Made by a program: the position numbers and the translations under genes. The notes beneath the pieces were generated by a model, which saw nothing but the letters and a program-made list of their open reading frames with translations, made no database searches and was not told the DNA's origin. 64,000 bases of DNA from Fomitopsis serialis (Eukaryota; Basidiomycota; Agaricomycetes; Polyporales; Fomitopsidaceae), in assembly GCF_022376445.1 (NCBI RefSeq), contig NW_025955135.1, positions 17,195-81,194 on the forward strand, written 5' to 3'. Below are positions 19,382 to 64,000 of the stretch, in pieces. Position 1 is the first letter of the stretch, and every line of letters begins with the position of its first letter.

Positions 19382-20082
19382 GGCGGAGAGGCACAAACAC
19401 GCGAACGAGCGCGGCCAATTGAATGATAAGGCACTTACTGTAAACAAAGTTATTTAACCCGCAGACTCGGAGCCTTTCCTTCTTGACTCGAGCGTCTAGA
19501 TCGTGACTAATGATACCTCCTCCTCCTCCTCAACTTCTGTAGATCGTACGCGGCGTTGAGCCAAGCCGACATTCGCCAGCGGATAGATTACCAGCTCCTC
19601 GAATGACACAGGGTTAACGTTCAGTACGACGTGCCTAATTTATAATGCTTTGTCTCGCCGCAAGCGTGCACATGAGAGGGCCAGGTAAGAGAAAGCAGCG
19701 GGTCTAACCGTACTCGAAAAGTGACGATTCACTGTAGGAAAGTAATAAGTAATCACTGCACTCTATTCTGTCCTTCCAGTGCTCTCCCGAAACGAATGAA
19801 AAAATACTAGTACTGTGATGTTCGTAGTAAACTTAAGCTTGAGTACTTGAGTGACATACGCATGCATGATAGGCCGACTCAACGCGAGTGCGGTATGGTA
19901 TAGTATCCCAGTCATACGGTAGCCTACTCAGGCTGCGTATTATTATTCCGGCCACAAGACCACGCGCAATCACAGCAGCAGACACCGTGACAAGACGGTC
20001 AACCAGGATATCTAAGGATCATCACAATAGCAACAATGCGAATACATATTTCAATGCTACTTTCCGTCCTACCCATCCCGTA
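19382..20082. repeat. Left edge of the duplicated array (remnant convergent spacer)
   Basis: No gene. From about 19690 rightwards the sequence resembles the spacer at 27240-27600 (shared blocks such as GATAGGCCGA, AGTGCGGTA and CACTCAGGCTGC-like runs). That spacer lies beyond the 3' end of secreted copy C. This places the left boundary of the tandem array at about 19.69 kb. No propeller gene lies to its left. Confidence 0.6.
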
Positions 20083-20976
20083 TCAACACTTTCCACCCGC
20101 TGCTACCGTCGTCGCATGGATGTTCGCCGGGTAGCACTGTGCATTGGACACCGCCACGCAGATGTTGGTCCCAGTAGGCGTTCGGACAGAGTAAGAGCCA
20201 CTCGTCACCGTCGTCCTCGAATTTCCCGCTTTGAGTGCCGCCCTGAGCGCCGCCTTGCATATGCCGGCGACCTGTCTCCGCGTGTACTTGTGCGCGACGT
20301 TTGTCGTCATTCCCGTCGTACCTTTATTAACCCAGAGCGTCTTCGGCTTCACAGGAAAGGATCAGGGTTAGTCGGGGAAAGCATATGAGGCGAAGCAGCT
20401 CACCCCCTTGCCGGCCTGCACATGAGCGAGAGCCGTCGCAGGATCGACCGTCATGTGCCCAGCAGTGCCTTTGTTGGCGTTGTGCGCGAACCAAGTGGAC
20501 GTGAGATGCCGGCCAGAATTTGCCTTGTCGGGACGGCCGTTCAGGACGTGGTTCTTCATCCCTTTCCACTTTGCCTCGGCCTTTTTCCCACAACACTTCT
20601 TGTAGCAAGGATCTGTCGTATAGGCTTTAGCACTAAGACGGTCACGTCACGCAGGCAGCACTAGTAGGTACTTACAGCGGATGCCTTCTTGCATTGAATG
20701 GCAGATGTCGCGAGAGATCCAGGATGGCCTTCTTTCGCCGCACAGCTTTGAGTGTCTAGCGAGAACCCGCAATGACTTGCACGGACTGCAGAAGCAGGAG
20801 CATGAATAACGGCTTCTGAGCCACTGAGACGGTGGAAACGTACCACAAGAGTCGCAGTCTGTCAGTCTCGCACATGCTGTGGCATCATGTCGGGAGCCGG
20901 GCGTAAGCGGGGCGGCTTGCACTAAGAAGACAGTGCAAAGGAGGGTGAGGGCGGCGAGAGCAGTAGTGAGACGCAT
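20083..20976 (-). CDS. Small secreted cysteine-rich protein, array copy A (EndoU-like motif order)
   Basis: First of eight related secreted proteins. Four exons: signal peptide (MRLTTALAALTLLCTVF) with CARLTDCDSC; a short Cys exon; an exon with NHVLNGRPDKANSGRHLT; and a last exon KTLWV through VAGICKAALRAAL, NICVAVSNAQCYPANI to a terminal GGKC. All introns are GT-AG and phases join. About ten Cys suggest disulfides, hence secretion. The ordered H-x-L-x-G, GRH, KTLW and QCYP residues look like the two His, Lys and Tyr of EndoU ribonucleases (first to second His 14 residues, second His to Lys about 36). I infer a possible secreted nuclease; a plain effector-like protein is the alternative. The frame is intact. 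Divergent from propeller copy a. Confidence 0.72.
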
Positions 20977-22040
20977 GGCTGCTATTTGGAACTGGTCGTT
21001 ACGTTCGTGCAATAAGGGAAGATTATACGTGAGTGACTGGAAGGTTAAGATGAAGGGTGAGTAGCTGGATGTACGTTAGAGCAAAGCTACACGAGTGATG
21101 GAGGGCCAGCCCGGCTTGGGTCGTTGCTACAACCTGCCTTTTATCTTGTTGAACCCGTCATTTAGACGTGCGAGCGTTCCACTGAATGCGATGGCATTTC
21201 TCCGCATGAGACCGACTGAACGGTACGAAGCCCCCAAGCGCGCGCGTAGTATGGCAGATTGAGATGATACACGATTCAAAGCATCGCAAGGTTCTATACC
21301 ATGCAGCATGTAAACCACAACAGCATACACTCGGAGCGCAATGAGAAGTACTTACCTTGAAAGATTGGAGGCTTAAGGTTTTTACGCTTCGCTGTTGTAT
21401 GTGACGGTCTAGGTCCCAGCGCCTGGGCATACAGCTCGAACTCAAGGACGAACATAGGGCATATCCGGAGAAGAGACAGTTTGCACTTCGTCTTGTCCGC
21501 CCTACGCTCTAGAATTGATCAGCGCCCTCGTGATACGCAACGCCGGCTGCTGTGCGCGTTTGGGACCCACGTTCGCCGCGTTGAACCGCTACACTCAGAC
21601 GTTCCAGCGAGTATTCAACGGTTCTCTTCAAGTGAATTCGCGCTCACCAGTCACAAGCATCTCGTAACATGCTCCGAAGACGGTGTCAACTGCTATGCTG
21701 CACCTTTGAGGTGCGCATTCACCAATTAACGTTCGATGGCCGCGCGCAAACGTATTCGGAAACTCCGGAGCAGGCGTCGGACCCTGCCAAAGCCACAACT
21801 GCCAGGGCGGTCCCGATCAGGAGATCAAGACAGGAGCTGTGCGTCGTGAATGACCATTGTTTCCAGAGGAGGCCACAGCATCTCGGAGGCTCAAAAGTGT
21901 TCCATCGCGCCGCCTGCTACAACCATTCGACCTTGCCCGGCTCAGGCTTCCACAAAGAGTGAGATACTACAAGTTGGACTCGTGTATGATCAGTATGCTG
22001 ACGGGCATATTATAGCCAAAAAGACCCACCGTCCACCTCG
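20977..22040. promoter_or_regulatory. Divergent spacer of unit 1 (A-a)
   Basis: Shared upstream region of secreted copy A and propeller copy a. The A-proximal part holds the conserved TATA block; the a-proximal part (about 21870-22040) ends with a segment also present before copies b, c, d, e, f and g. No conserved open frame. Confidence 0.6.
21075..21145 (-). promoter_or_regulatory. Core promoter of secreted copy A
   Basis: A GATAAAA (TATA-like, 21145-21139) precedes a conserved block with GGCTGGCCCTCCATCACTCG and TTGCTCTAACGTACAT, about 165 bases before the start codon. The same block follows the TATA box in all eight secreted genes. The box itself is degenerate here. Confidence 0.6.
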
Positions 22041-23285
22041 ATGTCTCTAGTGAACTCCCAGCCCCTCACTCTCGACGGCGACGTAGAGGCATTCTACGTT
22101 CACCAGTCGTATGTACTCACCTTCGGCAAAACCAGCGTCGACATCTGGCGCGCGGGAGCCCCACACGGGCGCCTCGAGCACGTAGCGCACCTCGCTCAGT
22201 TCGTACAGCCTCCGCCACATCAGCTCGACCCCATCCTCGACCCCGACCGCAACCTCATTGTCATCGCCGATCAGACTCAGGAAGATATCCCACCCTCGCT
22301 CCTCGTGTTCAGCCTCGTCGACGGTCGGCTCATCCGCAAGCTCGAGCTGTATGGCACCCTGACTGAGGACCGCTTGCGGTACGCCGATGGGAAGGTCCTT
22401 GTCGCGTCGTACTGGAGGACCTCACGACCATATTGCTCTGTGACATCCTTGGGGATGTCAAGATCCTCGGCCGGGCCACCCTCCCGACGGCCTCAGGGCG
22501 CGCGAGGAGACGCGGCTGAATACGAACGGAGGGTGCTGTTCCCGTCCACGTCAGGCCGAACGGCGATATCGTCGCGACGTCGTCGAGTCATGGGGTGACA
22601 AGATGGAGGTCCTGCGCTGGCGCGGGCCGACGTTCCCACTCACCGGAGCCAGACGCGAGCTTCGCGCTCGAGGTCGGGTCGAGACGGCGATCAGATTACC
22701 CGACTGCAGGCGCCCTGGACCGAAACCTTCCTGCTGGCTGTCTACGAGGCAGACGGTAACGTCCTCCCGGTCAATCCGCGTGAGACGTCGATCTATGCCA
22801 TCGACACGGAGACCATGACCATCCGGTGGCACGCTGAGCCCATCGGAGGCTGGGTGCACACCGTTCGACATGTCGCCGCGCTGGACATCATCGTCGCGTT
22901 TGGACGGCACGACCACGGGGACGGCATACCGTCCGACAAGTTCGGATACGTCGTCGTCCTCGACCTGCGACGGGCAGCCAGCGGCAGACGGAGACGATCA
23001 ATCACGGCGTGCAGGGCACTGCAGTAGAGTATTGCGGGCTCAGCGAGACCGGGGATAGCTTCGCGGTCGTCGTTGTCTTCGCTGATGGGTCCGTATGCGC
23101 GGTCGACCTGAAGCGATTCTTGGAGCATGGCTTCCCGAAGCAAGGCGAGCGAGTGGTGGTTTCGAGGGTTCTGCCGAGGGATCTAGCGTCAAGGAAGTGG
23201 CCATAGCTGGGCACACAGTGATCATTTCCTTCGACGACGGCAGCGGTCTCCGCGCAGCCTGTACTTTGGCCTGTCAGTGGAGTAA
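22041..23285 (+). pseudogene. Beta-propeller-like protein, array copy a (many frameshifts)
   Basis: Nearly identical to copy b at 25683 but interrupted by many one-base losses. The opening frame reads MSLVNSQPLTLDGDVEAFYV through GTLTEDRLRYADGKVLVA and then breaks near 22394 (GTCGCGTCG against GTCGCTGTCG in b). Further single-base losses are visible near 22495, 22533, 22545, 22624, 22645, 22677, 22690, 23174 and 23247, mostly in short runs. The original stop position is 23283-23285. Substitutions relative to b are few, so it is either a very young pseudogene or a poorly polished assembly of an intact gene. Intact relatives are predicted soluble repeat proteins of about 420 aa without a signal peptide. 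Confidence 0.75.
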
Positions 23286-23587: not shown

Positions 23588-24595
23588 CTAGCACTTCCCA
23601 CCCGGTGCTACCGTCGTCGGATTGATGCTCGCCGGGAAGCATTGTACTTTGGACACCGTCACGCAGATGTTGCCCCCAAAAGGCGACTGGACGGAGTAGG
23701 AACCTCTCGAGTCGCCCGTTTTGAGCAGTACCGCGAGCGCGGCCTTGCATATGCCGGCGACCTGCACCTGCGTGTACTTGTTCGCACCTACCGCCGTTCC
23801 CTCCGCATTGTCATTAATCCAAACTGTCTTGATCTTCGACTACGCAGGAGATGATTAGGGTTAGTCGGGAAAAGTATATGAGGCGAAGCAGCTCACCTTC
23901 CCGCCGGTCTTCACCTGACCGAGACCCGTCGCATCATTGACATCCATGTCCCCAGCAGTGCCTTTTTTGGCAGGGTGCGCGAACCAAGTGGACGTGAGAT
24001 GCCGGCCAGAATTTACGTTGTCGGGACGGCCGTTCAGGACGTGGCTCTCCATCCCATCCCACAATGTATCCGCCGTCACGGTTTGTCCCACAACCTGCTT
24101 TGCAGCAACCACTGCAACAGTACTTGCAGCGCTTACTGCAACAGTACTTGCAGCGCCTACTGCAACAGTACTTGCAGCACCTCTTGCAGCAGTCCTTGCA
24201 GCACCCGCTGCATCAGTCCTTGCAGCAAGGGTCTGTCGTACGGACTTCAGCATAAAGACAGTCCCGTCACGGGACAGCGCTAGGTACTTACAGCGGATGC
24301 TCTCTTGCATTGAGCCGCGGATGTCGCAAGGGACCCAGGGTGACCTTCCTTCGCGGCACAGCTCTGAGTGTCAAGCGAGAACCCGCAACGACTCGTATGA
24401 GCTGCAATAGCAGAAGCATGAGTAACGGGTCTCGAGCCACTGAGACGGTGGAAACTCACCACAGGAGTCGCAGTCTGTCAGTCTCGCACAGGCTGTGGCA
24501 TCGTGTTGGAAGCGAAGCGTAAGCGGGGCGGCCTGGGCCAAGAAGACAGTGCAAAGAAGTGTGAGGGCGGCAAGGACAGCAGCAGTGAGACGCAT
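23588..24595 (-). CDS. Small secreted cysteine-rich protein, array copy B, with Ala-rich repeat insertion
   Basis: Same four-exon architecture as copy A. Signal peptide MRLTAAVLAALTLLCTVFLA, then CARLTDCDSC; Cys exon SRCGFSLDTQSCAAKEG; an exon with SHVLNGRPDNVNSGRH; and a last exon starting KIKTVWIND, with QCFPASI and terminal GGKC. Compared with other copies, the third exon carries about 40 extra residues rich in Ala, Thr and Val (AASTVAVS units) encoded by a 24-base tandem repeat. The last exon lacks four residues before GSYSV, in frame, and has Phe instead of Tyr in QCFP. The frame stays open if the introns are as in copy A. Subgroup A/B/D by the QAAPL signal-peptide end. Function is as uncertain as for copy A; the Tyr-to-Phe change weakens a catalytic reading. 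Confidence 0.68.
24111..24230. repeat. 24-base tandem repeat inside secreted copy B
   Basis: Five 24-base units start at 24111, 24135, 24159, 24183 and 24207; the first three are nearly identical (ACTGCAACAGTACTTGCAGC core) and the last two diverged. Read on the minus strand they encode eight-residue Ala/Thr/Val units. No other array copy has them. Confidence 0.85.
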
Positions 24596-25682
24596 GGTAG
24601 CTATACGGGACTGGTCGTTACGTTCGTGCAATAAGGGAAGATTCTACGTGAGCGAGTGGACGGTGAAGAGGAAGGGTGAGTAGCTGAATGTACGTTAGAG
24701 CAAGGATGCACGAATGATGGAGGGCCAGCCTGGCTTGGGTCGTTCCTATTCCCTGCCTTTTATATTGTGTGGCCGTCAGTTCAGATATACGAGCGTTCTG
24801 CCGAATGCGATCCGACATCTCTTCAGGAGACACTTGAACGGCACGAACCACACAAACAGCGCCGTGGAATGGCAGATTGAGATGAAACACAATTCGAAGC
24901 ATCGCATGGTTCTGTACCAAGGAGCATGTAAGCTGTATAAAGCGCGTACAAGAAGTACTTACCCTGAGAGACCAGATGTTTGATGTTAAGCATCGCTTTT
25001 GGGGTATAAACTCCTTACGCCTGGGCCTACGGCTCGAATGCAAGGACTTACATAGGGCGTATCCAGAGGAGAGACAGTTTGAACCTTATCTTGTCTGTCA
25101 TGTCAACCCTGTCTGCCTGCGCTGTAGAATTGACCAACGCACTCGTGATACGCAACTCGGCTGCTGCAACGTTCGCCACGTCCGCCGCAATCAGACGTTT
25201 CGTCAACGGTCCACTTGAACCCCCACCCACCAAGGCATCCAGTAACAGCTCCGAAGGAGGCATCGGCTGCTGCGCTACACCTTTGAAGTCCCCAGCATTC
25301 ACTATGTTCGCTGCGTCTAAACGTCTCCGAGTCAGGAAGCTGTCAACGACCCTCTTGAATTCCCACTCACCTAAGCATCCCATAACAGTATCGAATTTCC
25401 CTCTTTCTCCCCCGGACACTGCGGAGCAGGCGTCGGACCCATCTGCCAAAGGCATAACTGCCTACAGGGTGGTCCCGGTCATGATATCAGGACCATTGTG
25501 GTCAGAGAAGACTACAGCATCTTGGGGCGAGTCAAAAGTGTTCTATCGCGCTTCCTGCTACGACCATTCGACCTTGCCTGACTTTCCTGGTTTCCACAGA
25601 GAGTAAGACACTACATTGGACTCGCGTATGATCAGCACACTGATGTGCGTTCTCTAGCCAAAAGTACCCACCATCCACCTCA
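24596..25682. promoter_or_regulatory. Divergent spacer of unit 2 (B-b)
   Basis: Shared upstream region of secreted copy B and propeller copy b, homologous to the other unit spacers. A 175-codon open frame inside (25079-25606, plus) is not maintained in the sister spacers and was not called a gene. Confidence 0.6.
24690..24764 (-). promoter_or_regulatory. Core promoter of secreted copy B
   Basis: TATAAAA on the minus strand (24764-24758), followed by the conserved block ending TTGCTCTAACGTACATTCAG, about 165 bases before the start codon, as in the other secreted copies. Confidence 0.65.
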
Positions 25683-26947
25683 ATGTCTCCAGCCAACCCC
25701 AGCCCCTGGCCCTCGACGGCGACGTAGAGGCATTCTACGTTCACCAGTCGTATGTACTCACCTTCGGCAAAACCAGCGTCGACATCTGGCGCACGGGAGC
25801 CCCACACGGGCGTCTCGAGCACGTAGCGCACCTCACCCAGTTCGTACAACGTCCGGCGTATCACCTCGACCCTGTCTTCGACACCGACCGTAACTTCATC
25901 GTCATCGCCGACCAGACTGAGGAAAGCGTCCCACCCTCGCTCCTCGTGTTCAGCCTCGTCGACGGTCAACTCATCCGCAAACTCGAGTTGCGTGGCACTC
26001 TGACTGAGGACCGCTTGCGGTACGCCGATGGGAAGGTCCTTGTCGCTGTCGTACTGGAGGACCTCACGACCATATTGCTCTGTGACATCCTCGGGGATGT
26101 CAAGATCCTCGGCCGGGCCACCCTCCCGACGGGCCTCAGGGCGCGCGAGGAGACGCGGCTGAACACGAACGGAGGTGTGCTGTTGCCCGTCCACGTCAGC
26201 CCGAACGGCGACCTCATCGCGACGTCGTCCGAATCATGGGGTGACAAGATGGAGGTCTTGCGCTGGCGCGGGGCCGACGTTCCCAACTCACCGGAGCCAG
26301 ACACGAGCTTCGCGCTCGAGGTCGGTGTCGAAGACGGCGATCAGATCTACCCGACCTGCAGTGCGTCCCTGGACGCGAATACCTTCCTGCTGGCTGTGTA
26401 CGAGGCAGACGGTAACGTCCTCCCGGTTCAATCCGCGTGCCAGACGTCGATCTATGCCATCGACACGGAGACCATGACCATCCGGTGGCACGCTGAGCCC
26501 ATAGGAGGCTGGGTGCACACCGTTCGACATGTCGCCGCGCTGGACATCATCGTCGCGTTTGGACGGCACGACCACGGGGACGGCATACAGTCCGACAAGT
26601 TCGGATACGTCGTCGTCCTCGATCCTGCGACGGGCAGCCAGCGGCAGACGGAGACGATCAATCACGGCGTGCAGGGCACTGCAGTAGAGTATTGCGGGCT
26701 CAGCGAGACCGGGGATAGCTTCGCGGTCGTCGTTGTCTTCGCTGATGGGTCCGTATGCGCGGTCGACCTGAAGCGATTCTTGGAGCATGGCTTCCCGAAG
26801 CAAGGCGAGCGAGTGGTGGTTTCGAGGGTTCTGCCCGAGGGATCTAGCGTCAAGGAAGTGGCCATAGCTGGGCACACAGTGATCATTTCCTTCGACGACG
26901 GCAGCGGGTCTCCGCGCAGCCTGTACTTTGGCCTGTCAGTGGAGTAA
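25683..26947 (+). pseudogene. Beta-propeller-like protein, array copy b (single N-terminal frameshift)
   Basis: Full-length copy whose only visible defect is a one-base loss just after the start (about 25697: GCCAACCCCAG where intact copies have a CTCCCAG-type sequence), which takes the first ATG out of frame. Downstream the frame is open to the stop at 26945-26947: VFSLVDGQLIRKLELRG, KMEVLRWRGADVPNSPEPD, YAIDTETMTIRWHAEPIGG and VEYCGLSETGDSFAVVVVFA are all intact. It could still be translated from an internal start. Subgroup a/b/d. The protein lacks a signal peptide and shows repeated beta-strand motifs ending in hydrophobic-D/T patterns, typical of WD40-like propellers; no catalytic motif was seen. 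A base-call error is possible. Confidence 0.72.
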
Positions 26948-28502: not shown

Positions 28503-29202
28503 GGTGGATGTATGGACTGGTCGTTATGTTCGTGCGGTGAGGGGAGTTTCTGAATTAGTGTCTTGAAAGCAGATTAGAAGGATGGACAAGTAGTTGAAAG
28601 TACGTTAGAGCAAGATTGCACGCGTGAAGGAGGACCGGCCTGGCTTTGGACATCGCTCCGTCCTGCCTTTTATATCTGGCAAATATCGGCCTTGACACGA
28701 GCGTCGGTGGACAGTTCGTTCCGACAGGCGACCGTTTACTAACCGAGTGTGCCCCGCCAGCTCTCCAGCGGGGTCATGCCAGTCATGATAGCACCACACG
28801 CGGACAAGGCGCGGTCACCTTGAGCACCCGGAGGTTTGAAACCAGCGAAGAAGTCGACAACCATCTTCCGGAACCCACATTCCGCCGCCCGTAACATACT
28901 CCGGAGAAAGCGTGGACTGATCTGGTACTGCACCTTTGAAGCCCAGGTTCACCGCAAGTTCGCCGTACCCAAACGTCTCAGGAAGCCCCTCTTAACCGCG
29001 CGCCCACCGAAGCATCCCGTAACGGTATCCGTGAGGGGCCACAGCATCTGGGGGGCTCAAAAGTGTTCCATCGCGCCCCCTACGACCATCAATTCGACCT
29101 TGCTTGACTTCCGCCTGCAGAGAGTGAGACGCTACATTGGATCGCGTAGATTCAGTATGCTGACGCGCTTTGTCCAGGCAACACTACCCACCATCCACCT
29201 CG
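28503..29202. promoter_or_regulatory. Divergent spacer of unit 3 (C-c), shortened
   Basis: At about 700 bases this is the shortest of the seven spacers (others 0.96-1.28 kb). It keeps the C-proximal TATA block and the c-proximal region, so an internal stretch has been lost. Confidence 0.55.
28600..28674 (-). promoter_or_regulatory. Core promoter of secreted copy C
   Basis: TATAAAA on the minus strand (28674-28668), followed by the conserved GGCCGGTCCTCCTTCACGCG and TTGCTCTAACGTAC block, about 165 bases before the start codon. Confidence 0.65.
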
Positions 29203-30466
29203 ATGTCTCCCCAGCCTTTGACTCTCGACGGCGACGTAGAGACATTCTACGTCCATCAGTCCTATGTACTCACCTTCGGCAAAACCAGCGTCGATGTCTG
29301 GCGTGCGGGAGGCCCACACGAGCGCTCGAGCACGTAGCGCACCTCGCCCACTTCGTACAACCTCCGGCATATCACCTTGAACCCATCTTCGACATCGACC
29401 GTAACCTCATCATCGTCGCCGATCAGGCCCAGACAAAGTCCCACCCTCGCTCTTCGTATTCAGCCTCGTCGACGGTCACCTCATCCGCAAGCTCGAGCTG
29501 TATGGCACCTTGACCGAGGATCACCTGTGGTACGCTGACGGCAAGGTCGTTGTCGCCATAGTAGAGGACCTCACCACAGCCTTGCTCTGCGACGTCCTCG
29601 GGGACGGCGGGGTCCTCGGCCGGGCCACCCTCCCCTCACGTCTCAGGGCGCGCGAGGAGAAGCGGGTGAACACGAACGGAGGCGTGCTGTTGCCCGTCCA
29701 CGTCAGGCCGAACGGCGACATCATCGCGACGTCGTCCGAGGCGTGGGGTGATAAGATGGAGGTCCTGCGCTGGCGCGGGGCCGACGTTCCCAACTCACCG
29801 GAGCCAGACGCTAGCTTCGAGCTCGAGGTCGGGATCAAGGACGGCGATGAGATCCACCCGACATGCAGTGTGCCCCTGGACAGGAACACCTTCCTGCTGG
29901 CCGTTTACGAGGCACACGGCAGCATGCTCCAGGTGCAATCCGCCTGCCAGACGTCGATCTATGCCATCGACACGGAGACCATGACCATCCGGTGGCACGC
30001 TGAGCCCATCGGAGGTTGGGTGCACACCGTTCGATACGTCGCCGCTCTGAATGTCATCGTCGGGTTTGGACGGCACGACAACGGGGACGCCATACAGTCC
30101 GACAAGTTCGGATATGTCGTTATCCTCGACCCCGCGACGGGCATCCAGCAGCAGACGGAGAAGATCAACCACGGTGTACAGGGCACTGCAGTGGAGTATG
30201 GCGGGCTCCGTCAGACCGGGGATAGCTTCGCGGTCGTTGTTGTCTTCGCTGATGGGTCAGTGTGCGCGGTCGACCTGAAGCGTTTCCTGGAACATGGGTT
30301 CCCCAGAGAAGGCGAGCGAGTGGTGGTTTCTAAGCCGCTGCCAGAGGGGTCTAGAGTCAAGGAGGTAGCTGTAGGTGGGCAGACAGTGATTATTTCTGTC
30401 GACGACGGCAGTGATTCTCCGCGCGTCGTGTATTTTAGCCTGGAGGCCAACGGGTATGTACAGTAG
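29203..30466 (+). pseudogene. Beta-propeller-like protein, array copy c (two frameshifts)
   Basis: Closest to copy e (shared VETFYVHQSYVLTFGKTSVD, VWRAGGPHER and GTLTEDHLWYADGKVVVA). Starts MSPQPLTLDGDVETFYV. A one-base loss near 29321 (GAGCGCTCGAGC against a GCGCCTCGAGC-type sequence) shifts the frame at ...GGPHER. The second break near 29433 (CCCAGACAAAGTCCC against CCCAGGAGAATGTCCC in e) shifts it again. From 29510 the frame is open for 318 codons to 30466, ending YFSLEANGYVQ, a tail unlike other copies. Degenerate relative to right-arm copies. Sequencing error is less likely here because substitutions are also frequent. Confidence 0.75.
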
Positions 30467-43002: not shown

Positions 43003-44262
43003 CTACTCGAGGCTAAAGTACTGGCTGCGCGGAGACCCGCTGCCGTCGTCGACGGAAATTATCACTGTGTGCCCACCTACAGCTACTTCCTTGACTCTGG
43101 ACCCCTCTGGCAGTCGCCTCGAAACCACCAACCGCTCGCTTTCCCTCAGGAAGCCATGCTCCAGGAATCGCCTCAGGTCGACCGCGCATACTGACCCATC
43201 AGCGAAGACAACGACGACCGCGAAGTCATCACCTGTCTGGCTGAGTCCGCAGTACTCTACTGCAGTGCCCTGCACGCTGTGGCTGATCGTCTCCGTCTGC
43301 CGCTGGCTGCCCGTCGCAGGATCGAGGACGACGACGTATTCGAACTTGTCGGACTGTATGCCGTCCCCGTTGTCGTGCCGTCCAAACGCGACGATGATGT
43401 CCAGCGCGGCGACATGTCGAACGGTGTGCACCCAGCCTCCTATGGGCTCAGCGTGCCACCGGATGGTCAAGGTCTCCGTGTCGATAGCATAGATCGACGT
43501 CTGGCAGGCAGACTTCACCTGAAGCACGTTACCGTCTGCCTCGTAGACGGCCAAAAGGAAGGTGTTCTCGTCCAGGGGCGCACTCCATGTCGGATAGATC
43601 TCATCGCCGTCTTCGACCCCGACCTCGAGCGCGAAGCTCGCGTCTGGCTCCGGTGAGTTGGGAACGTCGGCCCCGCGCCAGCGCAGGACCTCCATCTTGT
43701 CAGCCCATCCCTCGGACGACGTCGCGATGATGTCGCCGTTCGGCCTGACGTGTACGGGAAGCAGCACACCTCCGTTCGTATTCAGTCGCTTCTCCTCGCG
43801 CGCCCTGAGGCGTGTGGGGAGGGTAGCACGGCCGAGGACCCTGCCATCCCCGAGGACGTCACAGAGCAGTATGGTCGTGAGGTCTTCCAGTACGACGGCG
43901 ACAAGGATCTTCCCATCGGCGTACCGCAAGCGATCCTCAGTCAGGGTGCCATACAGCTCGAGCTTGCGGATGAGTTGACCGCCGATGAGGCTGTACACGA
44001 GGAGCGAGGGTGGGACGTTTTCCTCAGTCTGATCGGCGATGACCATGAGGTTGCGGTCGGTGTCGAAGACGGGGTCGAGGTGATACGCCGGAGGTTGTAC
44101 GAAGTGGGCGAGGTGCGCTACGTGCTCGAGACGCCCGTGTGGGGCTCCCGCACGCCAGATGTCGACGCTGGTTTTGCCGAAGGTGAGTACATACGACTGG
44201 TGGACGTAGAATGCCTCTACGTCGCCGTCGAGGGTCAGGGGCTGGGAGACTGCTAGAGACAT
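43003..44262 (-). CDS. Beta-propeller-like protein, array copy d (intact)
   Basis: Open frame of 419 aa without introns, first of the inverted right-arm units. Starts MSLAVSQPLTLDGDVEAFYV. Repeated strand-turn motifs, each ending in a hydrophobic run and Asp/Thr (SVDIWRAG, NLMVIADQT, YSLIGGQLIRKLEL, KMEVLRWRG, YAIDTETLTIRWHAE, EYVVVLDPATG, GSVCAVDLRRF), suggest a six- or seven-bladed WD40-like propeller. No signal peptide and no membrane segment, so cytosolic or nuclear; probably a binding protein, partner unknown. Subgroup a/b/d. Divergently paired with secreted copy D across 1.28 kb. A long antisense frame over it is a codon-bias shadow. Family membership beyond 'propeller-like' was not recognised. 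Confidence 0.8.
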   Translation of the reverse strand: MSLAVSQPLTLDGDVEAFYVHQSYVLTFGKTSVDIWRAGAPHGRLEHVAHLAHFVQPPAYHLDPVFDTDRNLMVIADQTEENVPPSLLVYSLIGGQLIRKLELYGTLTEDRLRYADGKILVAVVLEDLTTILLCDVLGDGRVLGRATLPTRLRAREEKRLNTNGGVLLPVHVRPNGDIIATSSEGWADKMEVLRWRGADVPNSPEPDASFALEVGVEDGDEIYPTWSAPLDENTFLLAVYEADGNVLQVKSACQTSIYAIDTETLTIRWHAEPIGGWVHTVRHVAALDIIVAFGRHDNGDGIQSDKFEYVVVLDPATGSQRQTETISHSVQGTAVEYCGLSQTGDDFAVVVVFADGSVCAVDLRRFLEHGFLRESERLVVSRRLPEGSRVKEVAVGGHTVIISVDDGSGSPRSQYFSLE

Positions 44263-46966: not shown

Positions 46967-48223
46967 TTACTCAAGGCTAAAGTACAGGCTGCGCGGAGAC
47001 TCGCCGCCGTCGTCGACGAAAAGGATTACTGTCTGCCCAGCGATGGCCACTTCCTTGACGCTGGATCCCTCGGGCAGTGGCCTCGAAACCACCACCCGCT
47101 CGCCTTCTCTCGGGAAGCCATGCTCCAGGAATCGCCTCAGATCGACCGCGCATACGGACCCATCAGCGAAGACAACGACGACCGCGAACTCATCACCGGT
47201 TTGACTGAGCCCACAATACTCTACTGCAGTGCCCTGCACGCCGTGGTTGATCGTCTCCATCTGCCGCTGGCTGCCCGTCGCGGGGTCGAGGACGACGGCG
47301 TATCCGAACTTATCGGACTTTATGCCGTCTCCATTGTCGTGCCGTCCAAATGCGACGATAACATCCAGAGCAGCAACGTATCGAACGGTGTGCACCCAGC
47401 CTTCGATGGGCTTAGCGTGCCACCGAATGGTCATGGTCTCCGTGTCGATGGCATAGATCGACGTCTGGCAGGCAGATTGCACCGGGAGCCCGCTACCGTC
47501 TGCCTCGTAGACGGCCAGCAGGAAGGTGTTCTCATTCAGGTGCGCGCTGCATGTCGGGTAGATCTCATCGCCATCCTCGATCCCGACGTCGAGCGTGAAG
47601 CTAGCGTCTGGCTCCGGTGAGTGGGGAACGTCGGCCCCGCGCCAGCGCAGGACCTCCATTTTGTCACCCCACGCCTCGGACGACGTCGCGATGATATCGC
47701 CGTTCGGCCTGACGTGGACGGGCAACAGCACGCCTCCGTTCGTGTTCAGCCGCTTCTCCTCGCGCGCCCTGAGACGTGAGGGGAGGGTGGCCCGGCCGAG
47801 GACCCCACCGTCGCCGAGGACGTCGCAGAGCAAGGCTGTGGTGAGGTTTTCTACAATGGCGACAACGACCTTGCCGTCCGCGTACCACAGGTGATCCTCG
47901 GTCAAGGTGCCATACAGCTCGAGCTTGCGGATGAGGTGACCGTCGACGACGCTGAACACGAAGAGCGAGGGTGGGACATTCTCCTGGGCCTGGTCGGCGA
48001 TGATGATGAGGTTACGGTCGATGTCGAAGATGGGTTCGAGGTGATACGGCGGAGGCTGTACGAAGTGGGCGAGGTGTGCTACGTGCTCGAGGCGCTCGTG
48101 TGGGCCTCCCGCGCGCCAGACATCGACGCTGGTTTTGCCGAAGGTGAGTACATAGGACTGATGGACGTAGAATGTCTCGACGTTGCCGTCGAGAGTGAGG
48201 GGTTGGGAGTTTGCTGGGGACAT
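46967..48223 (-). CDS. Beta-propeller-like protein, array copy e (intact)
   Basis: Open frame of 418 aa. Starts MSPANSQPLTLDGNVETFYV and continues VDVWRAGGPHERLEHVAHLA, YHLEPIFDIDRNLIIIADQA, GTLTEDHLWYADGKVVVA, YAIDTETMTIRWHAKPIEGW and FADGSVCAVDLRRF, ending SPRSLYFSLE. Closest relative is broken copy c; the whole unit (propeller, spacer, secreted gene and the following convergent spacer) resembles unit 3 in inverted orientation. Predicted soluble repeat protein; partner unknown. Divergent from secreted copy E. Confidence 0.8.
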   Translation of the reverse strand: MSPANSQPLTLDGNVETFYVHQSYVLTFGKTSVDVWRAGGPHERLEHVAHLAHFVQPPPYHLEPIFDIDRNLIIIADQAQENVPPSLFVFSVVDGHLIRKLELYGTLTEDHLWYADGKVVVAIVENLTTALLCDVLGDGGVLGRATLPSRLRAREEKRLNTNGGVLLPVHVRPNGDIIATSSEAWGDKMEVLRWRGADVPHSPEPDASFTLDVGIEDGDEIYPTCSAHLNENTFLLAVYEADGSGLPVQSACQTSIYAIDTETMTIRWHAKPIEGWVHTVRYVAALDVIVAFGRHDNGDGIKSDKFGYAVVLDPATGSQRQMETINHGVQGTAVEYCGLSQTGDEFAVVVVFADGSVCAVDLRRFLEHGFPREGERVVVSRPLPEGSSVKEVAIAGQTVILFVDDGGESPRSLYFSLE

Positions 48224-49184
48224 CGAGGTGGTTGGTGGGTGCTTTTGGCTAAAAAACCCACGTCAATATACTGATCATATGCGATCTAATGTATAGTCTC
48301 ACTCACTGTGGAAGTCGGGCAAGGTCGAATGGTTGTAGTGGGGGTTGTGATGGAACACTTTTGAGCCCCCGAGATGTTCAGGCTGTGGCCTCCTAGGGAT
48401 ACGATTGCTATTCACGTCGCACAGCCCCTTTCCTGATCTCATGATCGGCATCGCCCTATAGGCAGGTGTACCTCCGAAACGACGGGTGGCGCACCGTCCG
48501 ATGCCTTCTACGGTGTGTCCGGATACCGTGTCGGGATGCTGAGGTGAGCGCCGGATCAAGAGGGGCTTCCTGATACCTTTGAGCGCGGCGAACCTGGGCT
48601 TCAAAGGTACAGCACCTGAGGCCTGAGCGCTGAGCAGCCCACACTTTCTCCGGAATATGTTACGGAATTCGGGTTCAAGAGGATGGTTGTCGACTTCATG
48701 AAACCTCGCTGGTTCATCCTTGTATTTGGGCACTTGGCACAGAGCTTGTTCCGGATAACTATTTCGAAGTTCAAACCTCCGGGCGCTCAAGGTGACTGGG
48801 CCCGCCTTGTCTATTAGGTGTGGTGCAATTTTGACTGACATGACATCTGCATGTGCAGCTCCGAATCACGTATCATCTTTATCTGCCAGAGCGCTGTTCG
48901 GGCGCTTTGTACTGCTCCCCTGGAGAGCTGACGGGCACATTGGGTTAAACGCTCGCATGTCGGAACGGACTGTGTACCGACGCTCGTGTGTCAAGGCGGA
49001 CGGCCGCCAGACATAAAAGGCAGGACGGAGCAATGTCCAAAGCCAGGCCGGTCCTCCTTCACGCGTGCAGTCTTGCTCTAACATACTTTCGACTACTCGC
49101 CCATCCGTCTGATTCGTTATCCAGACACTATTCCAGAAACTCCCCTCATCGCACGAACCTAACGACCAGCCCCATACATCCGCC
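48224..49184. promoter_or_regulatory. Divergent spacer of unit 5 (e-E)
   Basis: Homologous to the other spacers. The e-proximal side shares runs such as CACAGCCCCTTTCCTGATCT and CATGATCGG with units 4 and 7; the E-proximal side holds the conserved core promoter. No conserved open frame. Confidence 0.6.
49012..49083 (+). promoter_or_regulatory. Core promoter of secreted copy E
   Basis: CATAAAAGGCAGGACGG (TATA-like, 49012-49028) followed by GCCAGGCCGGTCCTCCTTCA and TTGCTCTAACATAC, about 170 bases before the start codon. First T of the TATA box is C here. Confidence 0.62.
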
Positions 49185-50848: not shown

Positions 50849-52114
50849 CTACTCCACTGGCAGGCTAAAATACAGGCTGGGCAGAGAATCACTGCTATCG
50901 TATACGGAAACGATCACTGTCTGTCCACCTACAGCTACTTTTTTGACTCTGGACCCCTCTGGCAGTGGCCTCAAAACCACCAACCGCTCGTCTTCTCTCG
51001 GGAAGCCATGCTCCAGGAATCGCCTCAGGTCGACCGCGCTTACTGACCCGTCAGCGAAAACAACGACAACCGCGAAGTTATCCCCGGTCTTGCTGAGCCC
51101 GCAATACTGTACTGCAGTGCCCTGTACGCCGTGGTTGATCGTCTCCGTCTGCCGCTGGCTGCCCGTCGCGGGGTCGAGGACGACGACGTATCCGAAACGG
51201 TCGGACTTTATGCCGTCCCCGTTGTCGTGCTGTCCAAATGCGACAATAACATCCAGAGCAGGAACATATTTGACGGTGTGCACCTGGCCTTCGATGGGCT
51301 TAGCGTGCCACCGGATGGTCATGGTCTCCGTGTCGATGGCATAGATCGACGTCTCGCAGGCGGATTGCACAGGGATGACGTCGCCGTTCGCCTCGTAGAC
51401 AGCCAGCAAAATGGTGCTATCATCGTCCAGAGGCGCGCTGCATGTCGGGTAGATCTCATCGCTGTCCTCGGTCCCGACCTCTAGCTCGAAGCTCGCATCT
51501 GGCTCCGGTGAGTTGGGAACGTCGGCCCCGCGCCAGCGCAGGACCTCCATCTTGTCACCCCACGCCTCGGACGACGTCGCGATGATATCGCCGTTTGGTC
51601 TGAGGTGGACGGGCAGCAACACGCCTCCGTTTGTGCTCACCCGCTTTTCCTCGCGCGCCCTGAGACGTGAGGGGAGGGTGGCCCGGCCGAGGACCCCGCC
51701 ATCCCCGAGGACGTCGCAAAGCAAGGCTGTGGTGAGGTCTTCTTCTGTGGCGACAACGATCTTGCCGCCAGCGTACCACAGGTAATCCTCGGTCAAGGTG
51801 CCGTTCAGCTCGAGCCTGCGGATGAGCTGACCGTCGACGAGGCTAAACACGAAGAGCGAAGGTGGAACATTTTCCTGGGCCTGGTCGGCGATGATGACGA
51901 GGTTACGGTCGGTGTCGAAGACGGGGTCGAGGTGGTACGCCGGAGGAGGTACGAAGTGGGCGAGGTGCGCTTCGTGCTCGAGGCGCCCGTCTGGACCTTC
52001 CGCGCGCCAGATGTCGACGCTGGTTTTGCCGAAGGTGAGTACATAGGACTGGTGAACGTAAAATGCTTCTACGTCGCCGCCGAGGGTCAGGGGCTGGGGG
52101 CTAGCTGGAGACAT
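50849..52114 (-). CDS. Beta-propeller-like protein, array copy f (intact)
   Basis: Open frame of 421 aa. Starts MSPASPQPLTLGGDVEAFYV; continues VDIWRAEGPDGRLEHEAHLA, YHLDPVFDTDRNLVIIADQA and GTLTEDYLWYAGGKIVVA. It carries one extra residue at LDDDSTILLAVYEANGDV and substitutions absent in siblings (SVSAVDLRRF where others have SVCAVDL, HAKPIEGQVHTVKYVPALDV). Ends LPSLYFSLPVE. All blade motifs are kept, so it is probably folded and functional. Paired with secreted copy F. No catalytic signature was seen. Confidence 0.8.
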   Translation of the reverse strand: MSPASPQPLTLGGDVEAFYVHQSYVLTFGKTSVDIWRAEGPDGRLEHEAHLAHFVPPPAYHLDPVFDTDRNLVIIADQAQENVPPSLFVFSLVDGQLIRRLELNGTLTEDYLWYAGGKIVVATEEDLTTALLCDVLGDGGVLGRATLPSRLRAREEKRVSTNGGVLLPVHLRPNGDIIATSSEAWGDKMEVLRWRGADVPNSPEPDASFELEVGTEDSDEIYPTCSAPLDDDSTILLAVYEANGDVIPVQSACETSIYAIDTETMTIRWHAKPIEGQVHTVKYVPALDVIVAFGQHDNGDGIKSDRFGYVVVLDPATGSQRQTETINHGVQGTAVQYCGLSKTGDNFAVVVVFADGSVSAVDLRRFLEHGFPREDERLVVLRPLPEGSRVKKVAVGGQTVIVSVYDSSDSLPSLYFSLPVE

Positions 52115-53241
52115 TGATGTGGATCGTGAGTACTTTTGGCTAGAGAACGCACGTCAGTATATTACTGATCATACGCGATCCAATGCATAGTCTCACTCTC
52201 GGTCGAAGTCGGGCGAGGTCGAATGGTCGTAGTAGGAGGTGCGATGCAACAGTTTTGAGTTCTTGAGATGCTGTGGCCTCCTTCGAAAACAATAGCTGTA
52301 CATGTCGTACAGCCTCTTTACTGATCTCATAAACGGGACCGCCCTACCATAGACCCTGGATGGCCCACCGTCCGATGCCTTCTCGAAGTTCTTCGGTGTG
52401 TTCGGTTACCGCCACAAGATGCTTCGGTGAGCACTGGATCAAGAGGGGCCTCCTGTGACTTTTGGACGTGGCGAACGCGGGCTACAAGGGTGCAGCACTA
52501 CAGCAGCCTACGTGTTTGCCTGGATACAATACGGAATTCTTTGGTGGGTCCAAGAAGACAGTTGTCGATTTCTTGAAACGTCTGGAAGTGGCGAACGTTG
52601 TGGACGTAGGCCATAGTGGTGCATCGCAGCATCACAGCAGCCGACTCGGATGTAGCATGTCACGATTGCCCTGATCAATCCTAGAGCCCAGGCAGGTAGG
52701 GTAGACATGGTGGGCAAGATATGATCCAAATTGTCCGTTCACTGGATACGCCCTATGCTCATACTTGTATTTGGACACTCGGCTCAGAGCTTATCCCAAA
52801 GCAAGGCTTACAAGCTCGATCCTCCAGACGCTCAAGATCATTCCTCCTTGTCCGTGTGTGGTATTATCTTGACTAACATACTGCATGTGCAGCACTGGAT
52901 GGTCCTCTTGATCCACGTATCATCTTCAAGTTCATCTGCCAGGGCGCTGTTCGGGCGCTTTGTAACAGCTGAGCGGGCACATTTGGTTGAATGCTCGTAT
53001 GGACTGTTTACCAACGCTCGCATGTCGAAGCTGTCGATTCCCAGATATAAAAGGCAGGACGTAGCTCTGTTCAAAGTCAGGCCGGTCCTCCTTCGCTGCG
53101 CGGGCAATCTTGCTCTAGTAACGTACATTCCAACGTAAGTTACATTCAACTACTCGTCTATCCTTCTTATTCATCGTCTATTTACCAGCGTATAAATTCT
53201 TCTAATCGCACGAACATAACGACTAGTCCCGTATATCCGAC
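52115..53241. promoter_or_regulatory. Divergent spacer of unit 6 (f-F) with internal duplicated block
   Basis: Contains two diverged copies of a block of roughly 110-120 bases: one around 52455 (GGACGTGGCGAACGCGGGCT) and one around 52570 (TTCTTGAAACGTCTGGAAGT, then GGCGAACGTTG). The same arrangement recurs in unit 7. Could be repeated upstream regulatory elements. Confidence 0.55.
53046..53120 (+). promoter_or_regulatory. Core promoter of secreted copy F
   Basis: TATAAAAGGCAGGACG at 53046-53061, then CAGGCCGGTCCTCCTT and AATCTTGCTCTAGTAACGTA, about 195 bases before the start codon. The leader is about 30 bases longer than in E. Confidence 0.66.
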
Positions 53242-54506: not shown

Positions 54507-55751
54507 CTACTCCAGGCTAAAATACAGGCTGCGCGGAGAGTTGTAGACGGACATGATCACTGTCTGCCCAACTACAGCTACTTCCTTAGCTCTGGACCCC
54601 TCTGGCAGCGACAGTCGCCTCGAAAATAACAACCGCTCGCCTTCTCTCAGGAAGCCATGCTCCAGGAATCGCCTCAGGTCGACGGTGCACACTGACCCAT
54701 CAGCGAAGACAACAACGACCGCGAAGTTGTCCCCGGTTTGACTGAGCCCGCAGTATTCTACGGCAGTGCCCTGCACGTTGTAGTTGATCGTCTCCGTCTG
54801 CCGCTGGCTGCCCGTCGCAGGGTCGAGGATGACGACGTATTCGAACTTGTCGACCTTGTCGCCGTCTCCGTTGTTGTGCCGTCCAAATGCGACGACAACA
54901 TCCAGCGTGGCGAAGTATCGAACGGTGTGCACCCAGCCTCCGATGGGCTTAGCGTGCCACCGGATGGTCATGGTCTCCGTGTCGATGGCATAGATCAACG
55001 TCTGGCAGGCGGATTGCACCGGGAGGACGTTACCGTCTGCCTCGTACACGGCCAGCAAGAAGGTGTTCTCGTCCAGCGGCGCGCTGCATGTCGGGTAGAT
55101 CTGATCGCCGTCCTCGACCCCGACCTCGAGCGTGAAGCTCGTGTCTGGCTCCGGTGAGTTGGGAACGTCGGCCCCGCGCCAGCGCAGGACCTCCATTTTG
55201 TCACCCCACGCCTCGGACGATGTCGCGATGATATCGCCGTTCGGCCTGAGGTGGACGGGCAGCAACACGCCTCCGTTCGTGTTCACCCGCTTCTCCTCGC
55301 GCGCCCTGAGACGTGAGGGGAGGGTAGCCCGGCCGAGGACCCCGCCGTCGCCGAGGACGTCGCAGAGCAAGGCTGTGGTGAGGTCTTCTTCTATGGCGAC
55401 AACGACCTTACCGTCAGCGTACCACAGTTGATCCTCGGTCAAGGTGCCGTGCAGCTCGATCTTGCGGATGAGATGACCGTCGACGAGGCTGAACACGAAG
55501 AGCGAGGGTGGGTCATTTTCCTGAGTCTGATCGGCGATGACGATGAGGTTACGTTCGATGTCGAAGACAGGTTCGAGGTGATACGCCGCAGGTTGTACGA
55601 AGTGAGCGAGGCGCGCTACGTGCTCGAGACGTCCGTGTGGGCCTCCCGCGCGCCAGACATCGACGCTGGTTTTGCCGAAGGTGAGTACATAGGATTGGTG
55701 GACGTAGAATGTCGCTACGTCGCCGTCGAGAGTCAAAGGCTGGGGAGACAT
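54507..55751 (-). CDS. Beta-propeller-like protein, array copy g (intact)
   Basis: Open frame ending at 54507. The start was placed at 55751 (MSPQPLTLDGDVATFYV), matching siblings; an in-frame upstream Met at 55787 would add 12 residues (MSRQQYSPSSTS) not seen in others. Length is 414 aa from the chosen start. Blade motifs are preserved: VDVWRAGGPHGRLEHVARLA, YHLEPVFDIERNLIVIADQT, GTLTEDQLWYADGKVVVA, LIYAIDTETMTIRWHAKPIG and FADGSVCTVDLRRF. It has two extra residues at RRLSLPEGSRAKEVAV, and a shortened end SVYNSPRSLYFSLE. Paired with secreted copy G across about 1.1 kb. Confidence 0.8.
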   Translation of the reverse strand: MSPQPLTLDGDVATFYVHQSYVLTFGKTSVDVWRAGGPHGRLEHVARLAHFVQPAAYHLEPVFDIERNLIVIADQTQENDPPSLFVFSLVDGHLIRKIELHGTLTEDQLWYADGKVVVAIEEDLTTALLCDVLGDGGVLGRATLPSRLRAREEKRVNTNGGVLLPVHLRPNGDIIATSSEAWGDKMEVLRWRGADVPNSPEPDTSFTLEVGVEDGDQIYPTCSAPLDENTFLLAVYEADGNVLPVQSACQTLIYAIDTETMTIRWHAKPIGGWVHTVRYFATLDVVVAFGRHNNGDGDKVDKFEYVVILDPATGSQRQTETINYNVQGTAVEYCGLSQTGDNFAVVVVFADGSVCTVDLRRFLEHGFLREGERLLFSRRLSLPEGSRAKEVAVVGQTVIMSVYNSPRSLYFSLE

Positions 55752-56877
55752 CGAGGTGGATGATGGTGAGTACTGTTGCCTGGACATAGCCCGTCAGCAT
55801 ACTGATCATACGCGGACCAATGTAGAGTCTCACTTTCTGGTCTCACTCTCTGTGGAAGTCGGACAAGATCGAATGATCGTAGCAGGAGGTGCGATGTATC
55901 ACTTTTGAGCCCTCGAGATGCTGTGGCTTCCTTTGAGAACAATAACCGTTCAAGTCGCACAGCCCCTTTCCTGATCTCATGATCTGGACCGCCCTATAGG
56001 CAGCCGTGCCTCTGGAATGATGGGCGGCCCACCGTCCGATGCCTTCTTGAAGTTCTTCGGGGTGTTCGGATACTGTTACAAGATGCTTCGGTGAGTACTG
56101 GATCAAGAAGGGCCTCCCGAGACCTTTGAACGCGGCGAACGCGGGTAAAGATGCAGCACTACAGCAGCCTACGTGTTCGCCTGGGTATCATACGGAATGC
56201 CTTGGTGGGCGCCGGTAACTTACAAGAAGACGGTTGTCGACTTCTTGAAACGTCTGGACGCGGCGAACGTTGTGGACGTGGGCCATAGTGCTTCAGCACA
56301 GCAGCCGACTCGGACGTCGCATGTCACGATATCTGCTTAGACCAATCCTAGAGCGCAGGCAGACAGGGTAGACCTTGCGGGCAAGATATGAACCAAATTG
56401 CCTGTTCATTGGATACGGGCGCCCTATGTTCATCTTTGTATTCGGGCACTTGGCTCAGCTTATCCCAAAGAGCAAGGCTTACAAGTTCAAAACCCCGGAC
56501 GCTCAAGGTGATTACTCTCGGTCCGTGTGGTATTATTTCGACTGACATGCTGCATATGCAGCACTGAATGATCCTCCAGGTCACGTATCATCTTAATCCG
56601 CCAGGGCGCTGCTCGAGCGCTGTGTAACGTTCCGCCGCCCACCTAGAGAGCTGATCGGGCACAATAGGTTGAACGCTCGCTGGTCAAGGCTGACGGTTGC
56701 CAGATATAAAAGGCAAGACGTAGCTCTGTTCAAAGCCAGGCCGGTCCTCCTTCACGCATGCAGCCTTGCTCTAACGTACATTCAACTACTAATCCATCCT
56801 TCTTGTCTACCGTCCACTCACCAGCGTAGAAATTCCGCTTACCGCACGAACGTAACGACCAGTACTGTACATCCGCC
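55752..56877. promoter_or_regulatory. Divergent spacer of unit 7 (g-G) with internal duplicated block
   Basis: Same architecture as unit 6. Diverged block copies lie near 56120 (CTTTGAACGCGGCGAACGCG) and 56245 (TTCTTGAAACGTCTGGACGC, then GGCGAACGTTG), followed by the G core promoter. Confidence 0.58.
56705..56785 (+). promoter_or_regulatory. Core promoter of secreted copy G
   Basis: TATAAAAGGCAAGACG at 56705-56720, then GCCAGGCCGGTCCTCCTTCA and TTGCTCTAACGTACATTCAA, about 170 bases before the start codon. Confidence 0.67.
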
Positions 56878-60332: not shown

Positions 60333-60368
60333 ATGAAAGAGAAGATGAAAGAGAAGATGAAAGAGAAG
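60333..60368. repeat. 12-base microsatellite
   Basis: Three exact tandem copies of ATGAAAGAGAAG. Short, in a gene-poor region. Confidence 0.9.
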
Positions 60369-62971: not shown

Positions 62972-63800
62972 CTAGCACTTCTCACCGGGTGCCGCCGCCG
63001 TCGCATCGGTCGTCGCTGGGTAGCACTGTACGTTGGACACCGTCACGCAGATGTGGTTCCCCCAGGGCGTCTGGACAGCGTAAGAGCCACTCGTCACCGA
63101 CTCCGTCGACTTGCCCGTGTTGAGCCCCGCCACGAGCGCGGCCTTGCATATGTTGGCGACCTGATTCCGCGTATACTTGTGTGCAATATGTGTCGCCTTT
63201 CCCTCCGCATCACTATCAATCCAAAGTGTCTTCTTCTTCACAGGCACATGAGCGAGACCCGTCGCTGCATTGATAATCATGTGCGCAGAAGTGCCCTTGT
63301 TATCAGCGTGGTCGAACCAAGTGGACGTGAGATGTCGGCCGGAATCTGCCTTGTCGGGGCGGCCATCCAGGGTGTGCGCCTTGATTTGTGTCCATACCAC
63401 ATCTGCTTTCGCAGCGACACTCCACTCTCGTGCGGCATGGATCTGTGGTACATACATCAACATCACGCCGCGATCTGATCAGGGACAGTGCTGGGTACTT
63501 ACAGCGGTCGCCTTCTTGCATTGAGTCACAGATGTTGCAAGCCTCCCAGCGTGGGCTTCCTTCGCTTCACAGCTTTGTGTGTCAAGTGAGAATTCACAAC
63601 GGCTCGCGCGGACTGCAATAGCAAGGATTGTGAATGACAGCTTGGAGGTAGTCAATAGACAACGTACCATAAGAGTCGCAATCCGTGAGGCTTACGCAGG
63701 TTTCAGCATCGTTCCGGGAGACTGTAAGCGGGACGGCCTGCGCCAAGAAGACAGTCCAAAGGAGTGTGAGGGTAGCGAGGAGAGCAGCAGTAAGACGCAT
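62972..63800 (-). CDS. Small secreted cysteine-rich protein, array copy H, third intron lost
   Basis: Starts at 63800 with signal peptide MRLTAALLATLTLLWTVFLA (Trp where siblings have Cys). The end of exon 1 reads DCDSYG: the Cys next to the first splice site is replaced by Tyr. Cys exon SRCEFSLDTQSCEAKEAHAG. Exons 3 and 4 are fused in one open frame: AHTLDGRPDKADSGRHLTST, then GLAHVPVKKKTLWIDSDAEG, NICKAALVAGLNTG, HICVTVSNVQCYPATT and terminal GEKC. VK of HVPVKKK comes from the former intron end (TGTGAAG), so the intron loss was imprecise but in frame. Both His motifs, Lys and Tyr are present. Its propeller partner, if present, would be on plus beyond 64000. Confidence 0.73.
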
Positions 63801-63891
63801 GGCGGATGTACTGGTCGTTATGTTCGTGCGATAAGAGGAGTTCCTACGCTGGTAAGCAGACGGTAAATCAGAAGGATGTATAAGTAGTTGA

Positions 63892-63966
63892 ATGTACGTT
63901 AGAGCAAGGCTGCACGCGTGAAGGAGGACCGGCCTGACTTGAACAGAACCACGTCCTGCTTTTATA
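63892..63966 (-). promoter_or_regulatory. Core promoter of secreted copy H
   Basis: TATAAAA on the minus strand (63966-63960), followed by CAGGCCGGTCCTCCTTCACG and TTGCTCTAACGTACATTCAA, about 165 bases before the start codon. Confidence 0.66.
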
Positions 63967-64000
63967 TCTGGCAACCGTCCAAGCCTTGACATGCGAGCGT

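What the first reader, a model, noticed from the sequence alone, without database searches (positions are those of the whole stretch)
19690..64000. Array of divergent two-gene units: secreted Cys-rich protein plus propeller-like partner
The same gene pair, always divergent and always sharing one spacer, occurs seven times in full plus one half unit at the edge. Seen directly: eight secreted genes and seven propeller genes in strict alternation. Duplication of the pair rather than of either gene alone implies the two work together or must be inherited together. Possible meanings are secreted toxin with intracellular antidote, ligand with receptor, or effector with chaperone. I know of no named fungal system with this layout.
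Basis: partly seen in the sequence, partly recalled or inferred. Interest (0 to 1): 0.92.

Follow-up and report, generated by a model that had tools for sequence, protein, structure and literature searches.

The report
Paired secreted-protein and propeller genes, fungus
A fungus, probably a wood-rot polypore, carries many copies of one back-to-back gene pair, a secreted two-part protein with a fast-changing tail that may be an RNA-cutting toxin and an internal propeller-shaped protein that may protect the producer, which would be a fungal counterpart of bacterial toxin-and-immunity systems if experiments bear it out.

The parts
20086..20976 (-). unit 1 secreted gene s1, 4 exons, open
22041..23273 (+). 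unit 1 propeller p1, pseudogene (nine frame-breaking events)
23591..24595 (-). unit 2 secreted gene s2, open; exons around the linker uncertain because of a 24-bp tandem repeat
25682..26947 (+). unit 2 propeller p2, long open frame but one frame-break just after the start codon
27661..28502 (-). unit 3 secreted gene s3, two frame-breaks in the part modelled; 3' end not modelled
29203..30445 (+). unit 3 propeller p3, two frame-breaks
43003..44262 (-). unit 4 propeller p4, intact single exon, 419 aa
45543..46435 (+). unit 4 secreted gene s4, 4 exons; array-type N-terminus with a strongly different C-terminal domain
46967..48223 (-). unit 5 propeller p5, intact, 418 aa
49185..50074 (+). unit 5 secreted gene s5, 4 exons
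50849..52114 (-). unit 6 propeller p6, intact, 421 aa
53242..54132 (+). unit 6 secreted gene s6, 4 exons
54507..55787 (-). unit 7 propeller p7, intact, 426 aa
56878..57769 (+). unit 7 secreted gene s7, 4 exons; intron 3 donor uncertain
62975..63800 (-). unit 8 secreted gene s8, 3 exons (intron 3 absent; contiguous frame 62972-63442 = P0018); its propeller lies beyond the contig end, seen in C24
44263..45542 (.). unit 4 shared divergent spacer; TATA box, then AGGCTGGTCCT at 45429
48224..49184 (.). unit 5 shared divergent spacer; CATAAAA in place of the TATA box, AGGCCGGTCCT at 49045
52115..53241 (.). unit 6 shared divergent spacer; TATA box and AGGCCGGTCCT at 53079
55788..56877 (.). unit 7 shared divergent spacer; TATA box and AGGCCGGTCCT at 56738
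20977..22040 (.). unit 1 shared divergent spacer; the 11-mer has one mismatch
24596..25681 (.). unit 2 shared divergent spacer; 11-mer at 24731 (minus)
28503..29202 (.). unit 3 shared divergent spacer (700 bp); 11-mer at 28641 (minus)

Best explanation
This is a conserved, multiplied two-gene module. One gene makes a secreted protein with a conserved delivery part (signal peptide and a PSI-like module of mostly six cysteines) and a C-terminal effector domain that diversifies between copies while keeping two histidines and other polar residues; I infer a metal-independent RNase-like toxin domain (BECR/EndoU-like or RNase A-like). The other gene, started from the opposite side of the same roughly 1 kb spacer, makes a beta-propeller without an evident signal peptide, which I infer stays in the cytosol and binds the effector domain, protecting the producer or kin if the toxin stays in or re-enters the cell. 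SHOWN: anatomy, linkage in this genome, shared core promoter on the secreted side, purifying selection on both genes, faster C-terminal domain, propeller fold by prediction. INFERRED: RNase activity, toxicity, cytosolic location, binding, protection. Because some secreted genes stay open where their own propeller is broken, protection would have to be shared between units rather than one-to-one.
Confidence: 0.35

Rival explanations
1. Co-regulated pair without antidote logic: the secreted protein is an extracellular effector or enzyme and the propeller an intracellular regulator, chaperone or adaptor that is made with it.
For: Shared spacer of 0.70-1.28 kb in 13 of 14 sites (for units 1-7; edges of matches for the rest) and a nearly private core promoter on the secreted side; the propeller's best PDB match is the F-box WD40 protein Fbw7; s1 and s2 stay open beside broken propellers.
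Against: No F-box found by Pfam in the four members scanned; an ordinary enzyme does not predict a conserved N-terminus with a faster C-terminus and an apparent swap.
Confidence: 0.3
2. Passive linkage: one ancestral divergent neighbour pair was copied by segmental duplication; the two proteins work independently.
For: All sites share one layout, so a single origin suffices; remnants at C778 and a lone last-exon fragment at C159:1992-2129 show that pieces scatter and decay; partner distances correlate weakly inside the array.
Against: No intact unpaired copy of either family was found in the genome (lower-bound searches); linkage persists across propeller synonymous distance 0.87-1.30 with both genes constrained.
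Confidence: 0.25
3. Poison-antidote drive element (spore killer type) that spreads by killing spores without the antidote.
For: Multiplied toxin-like plus partner pairs, many dead copies, an allele-like difference in the propeller (frame-break in C223 but not at that place in C407).
Against: The signal peptide argues for export; units 5-8 sit at the same places in overlapping contigs C24 and C85; no segregation data.
Confidence: 0.05
4. Ligand and receptor.
For: Secreted partner with a cysteine-rich PSI-like module (weak Pfam matches).
Against: By reading, the propeller begins with a hydrophilic N-terminus and has no evident membrane segment.
Confidence: 0.03

Closest known systems
Bacterial polymorphic toxin and contact-dependent inhibition systems (BECR/EndoU and RNase A-like toxin domains)
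   Same: Conserved N-terminal delivery part, diversifying C-terminal domain with two histidines, adjacent partner gene, arrays, one apparent C-terminal swap.
   Different: Eukaryotic secretory pathway and introns; one swap candidate only; partner is a divergent beta-propeller gene; no detectable sequence kinship; activity untested.
Fungal killer toxins acting on tRNA (Kluyveromyces lactis gamma-toxin, PaT)
   Same: Secreted fungal proteins; PMC3482391 (part 1 of section 47 read) calls them the eukaryotic systems closest to the bacterial ones.
   Different: Coded by linear plasmids (same source); here many copies on large contigs. Sequences were not compared.
WD40 / F-box beta-propellers such as Fbw7
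   Same: Propeller fold by prediction.
   Different: No F-box and no WD40 match in Pfam (only PQQ_2 below its cut-off, 23.2 against 27.6 bits); 10 of 13 database relatives are from three Fomitopsidaceae species and 3 are unnamed.
PSI (plexin) cysteine-rich domain, PF01437
   Same: Weak match in 4 of 6 members, best E 0.054; 0.019 for the C407 copy.
   Different: Below the curated cut-off (15.8 against 23.1 bits).

Membership tests
BECR-fold RNase toxins (EndoU-like) | N-terminal helical segment followed by a four-stranded meander | tested here: inconclusive
BECR-fold RNase toxins (EndoU-like) | two conserved histidines | tested here: met
   H13 and H27 invariant in 9 of 9 aligned copies; true of some BECR clades only, necessary for EndoU, not sufficient.
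BECR-fold RNase toxins (EndoU-like) | match to PF14436 EndoU_bacteria | tested here: inconclusive
   No match; the control genomes were silent too.
Tox-EDA39C / RNAse_A_bac | H in the N-terminal half and Sx[HS]Y in the C-terminal half | tested here: inconclusive
   S-G-S-Y in 4 of 9 aligned copies (s1, s5, s8, s9); four others keep S-Y with another first residue and one has A-Y; no PF18431 match, controls silent. That Tox-EDA39C corresponds to PF18431 is recalled.
Polymorphic toxin system | conserved N-terminus, variable C-terminal toxin domain | tested here: inconclusive
   N-terminus conserved and C-terminus faster (0.21-0.23 against 0.55-0.57), one mosaic copy; but the C-terminal domains are all one family and their toxin nature is not shown.
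Polymorphic toxin system | cognate neutralising immunity protein | not testable with these tools
   Needs binding and growth assays; within-array co-divergence is weak.
Beta-propeller proteins | propeller fold | tested here: met
   AlphaFold pLDDT 83.9, 928 PDB matches at E <= 0.001.
F-box WD40 proteins | F-box | tested here: not met
   No F-box at E <= 1 in four family members scanned: P0001, P0004, P0014, P0017.
PSI domain | PF01437 above curated cut-off | tested here: not met
   Best seen 15.8 bits against 23.1, the C407 copy; 4 of 6 array members match weakly.

The most novel reading that the evidence does not exclude
A chromosomally encoded, tandemly expanded, C-terminally diversifying secreted RNase-toxin system of a filamentous fungus, with a new class of immunity protein (a cytosolic beta-propeller) expressed from the same divergent spacer: a eukaryotic counterpart of bacterial polymorphic toxin-immunity loci used for kin or competitor discrimination.
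Probability: 0.25. Interest if true: 0.92.

Novelty: new variant of a known kind. Interest (0 to 1): 0.62.

Why it matters
If the C-terminal domain is a toxin and the propeller its antidote, filamentous fungi would have their own modular toxin-immunity arrays, and a WD40-like propeller would join the list of immunity folds. Even without that, this is a clear case of a two-gene module kept together through two old clades with a promoter signature almost private to it, which makes its function testable with one expression assay.

Tried and rejected
Chance or simple recent tandem duplication: rejected by old synonymous distances and purifying selection. Bacterial or viral relatives of the C-terminal domain: tblastn against plasmids and phages gave no credible hit (the best, E 0.1, lies inside an ORF that reads like a P-type ATPase); pattern scans of bacterial/archaeal and viral contigs gave 3 and 17 pattern matches, none confirmed. 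PDB sequence profiles: only weak matches to Hsp110 Sse1 and a few others (best E 0.021 and 0.048), taken as chance. Foldseek of the domain: nothing significant; in the VIA-align look no entry other than 6cp9 was listed, which excludes none. Profile-profile comparison with bacterial EndoU: not done, no bacterial genome handle could be obtained. PADLOC was not searched. Extra promoter matches at C287 and C734: no family gene recognised in the C287 stretch read (C734 not fetched). A weak extra secreted match at C224:388135-388509 (E 0.004, three stops) was taken as chance. tRNA genes: none.

Literature: all six keyword searches failed, as did five look-ups by DOI for three papers. Only PMC3482391 was read: outline with abstract, sections 28 and 39 (125, 131), part 1 of 2 of section 47 (126), and passages found by term. 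I therefore make no claim that the system is absent from print. Recalled, from no call: that the 6cp9 toxin is a BECR tRNase, catalytic residues of other toxins, and what PSI modules usually do.

None of these called for a change of the odds.

Full report
Setting. The window is the last 64 kb of contig C85 (81,194 bp) of a 66 Mb, 806-contig genome. Among named database proteins its propellers are closest to the brown-rot fungus Rhodofomes roseus (72% identity); of 13 relatives found, seven are from R. roseus, two from Daedalea quercina, one from Fomitopsis schrenkii and three unnamed, one of these 83% identical over 67% of the query (which scored only the 7992 best candidates). The host is therefore probably a member of Fomitopsidaceae (lineage of R. 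roseus); that these are brown-rot fungi is recalled.

Anatomy. Eight secreted genes and seven propeller genes lie in seven full divergent units plus one cut by the contig end. The four intact propellers in the window are single-exon, 418-426 aa. Secreted models are about 234-252 aa (the longest is the C407 copy) with three to five exons: signal peptide, six cysteines in a PSI-like pattern (five in s8), a short linker, and a C-terminal domain of about 145 residues. Units 1-3 and 4-7 face opposite ways around a 12.6 kb segment with two GNAT acetyltransferase ORFs. Three of seven propellers (p1-p3) and one of eight secreted genes (s3) are broken, s7 is doubtful. The broken propellers are all in the left half, whose s1 and s2 remain open.

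Beyond the window. Contig C24 overlaps the right end (98.9-99.96% identity in the stretches compared) and gives unit 8's propeller and unit 9, without frame-breaks in the models. C159 carries copies with identical or near-identical scores (not aligned base by base). Diverged pairs lie at C407 (allele-like copy C223), C24:402-406k and C24:518-520k; in the last, propeller and secreted matches abut, so the spacer and both starts are lost. C778 holds two more: a broken, nearly full-length propeller and a set of propeller pieces, each with a divergent first exon of the secreted gene about 1.05-1.06 kb away (E 2.0e-4 and 0.0025) and the promoter signature in front of it. Merging redundant contigs gives 14 assessable propeller sites (units 1-9, C407/C223, two on C24, two on C778), 14 of 14 with a divergent secreted gene or remnant. 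A propeller end at the edge of C537 cannot be assessed, and one lone secreted last-exon fragment lies at C159:1992-2129. Queries with distant propellers P0014 and P0017 added no new site. Such searches give lower bounds.

Promoter. The spacers align best near the secreted gene: a TATA box and, 30-33 bp on (start to start, where both were matched), AGGCYGGYCCT. In the window this 11-mer occurs seven times on both strands, 7 of 7 in front of secreted genes s2-s8 (expected 0.2 from base composition; s1 has one mismatch). Genome-wide, TATAAAA-N22-26-AGGCCGGTCCT matches ten times, 10 of 10 at these genes, duplicate contigs included; TATAA-N24-28-AGGCTGGTCCT matches seven times, 5 of 7 at these genes and two, with identical sequence, at C287 and C734, where no family gene was recognised (C287 read). 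The backwards control pattern matched zero times in both. Units 1, 2, 5 and 9 are missed by these exact patterns through single differences and the C24:518k pair has lost its spacer. The position of the 11-mer suggests the transcription start (inference).

Selection and modularity. Median dN/dS is 0.28 for propellers and 0.42 for secreted genes. In the secreted protein the signal peptide and PSI-like part have 0.21 and 0.23, the two parts of the C-terminal domain 0.55 and 0.57, the linker 0.56 (20 of 28 pairs). s4 has an array-type N-terminus (68-84%) but a C-domain nearly as far from its siblings (46-53%) as from the dispersed clade (44%); trees of the two parts disagree, though long-branch attraction is possible. 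For s1 against s2 the C-domain has dN 0.26 against dS 0.21 (one pair, 121 codons). Partner distances agree over all 12 pairs compared, broken copies included (Mantel r 0.89, p 0.0003), mainly because of the two clades; within the array (units 1-9) agreement is weak (r 0.38, p 0.047).

Mechanism. Most likely the N-terminal part serves secretion and delivery, the C-terminal part harms RNA in target cells, and the propeller shields the producer. The strongest objections are the open s1 and s2 beside broken p1 and p2, and the ordinary p4 beside the outlier s4; both would need broad, shared protection. If that fails, co-regulated partners or passive linkage remain.

Comparison and novelty. It works like a polymorphic toxin-immunity locus if the inference holds; membership in any named toxin family is not shown. 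I could not search the literature by keyword, so no priority claim is made. Score: interest 0.62; the most novel reading has probability 0.25.

Noticed in passing
window 40417-41241 and 41923-42741 (-): Two tandem GNAT acetyltransferase ORFs (300-nt blocks 74-78% alike in DNA) in the segment between the two half arrays.
   Followed up: partly
window 30888-31472: A 90-bp (180-bp) tandem repeat, 6.5 copies at 83% matches, just downstream of propeller 3.
   Followed up: no
G000:C85:1-9524 against window 49272-39742: The left end of C85 is a 99.3-99.95% identical inverted copy of part of the array, and C24 ends at window 49274, next to where that copy begins: assembly fold-back, haplotype join or real inverted duplication.
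   Followed up: partly
L063 (C407) and L064 (C223): Two allele-like copies of a diverged pair; the propeller is frame-broken in one and open through most of its length in the other.
   Followed up: partly
window 59009-60028: Dispersed 65-nt and 40-nt direct repeats, five and seven copies, between units 7 and 8.
   Followed up: no
window 57838-58216 and 62397-62898: Inverted repeat pairs (79-84%) flank the gap between units 7 and 8.
   Followed up: no
window 10271-10691 and 13578-14008: A duplicated stretch 73-80% identical; the first overlaps an ORF with a weak glycosyl hydrolase 18 match (E 0.006, below cut-off).
   Followed up: no
window 2560-3678 (-): ORF with ankyrin repeats.
   Followed up: no
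window 24100-24228: A 24-bp tandem repeat in the linker/intron region of s2 makes its exon model uncertain.
   Followed up: partly
G000:C287:35086-35127 and C734:52884-52925: The secreted-gene promoter signature occurs with identical sequence at these two places, probably one locus in two contigs, without a recognised family gene (C287 read only).
   Followed up: partly
protein P0016 (Rhodofomes roseus EVJ58_g885): A gene model that joins a signal-peptide-like N-terminus, by reading not of this secreted family, to part of the propeller; probably a mis-annotation of neighbouring genes.
   Followed up: no
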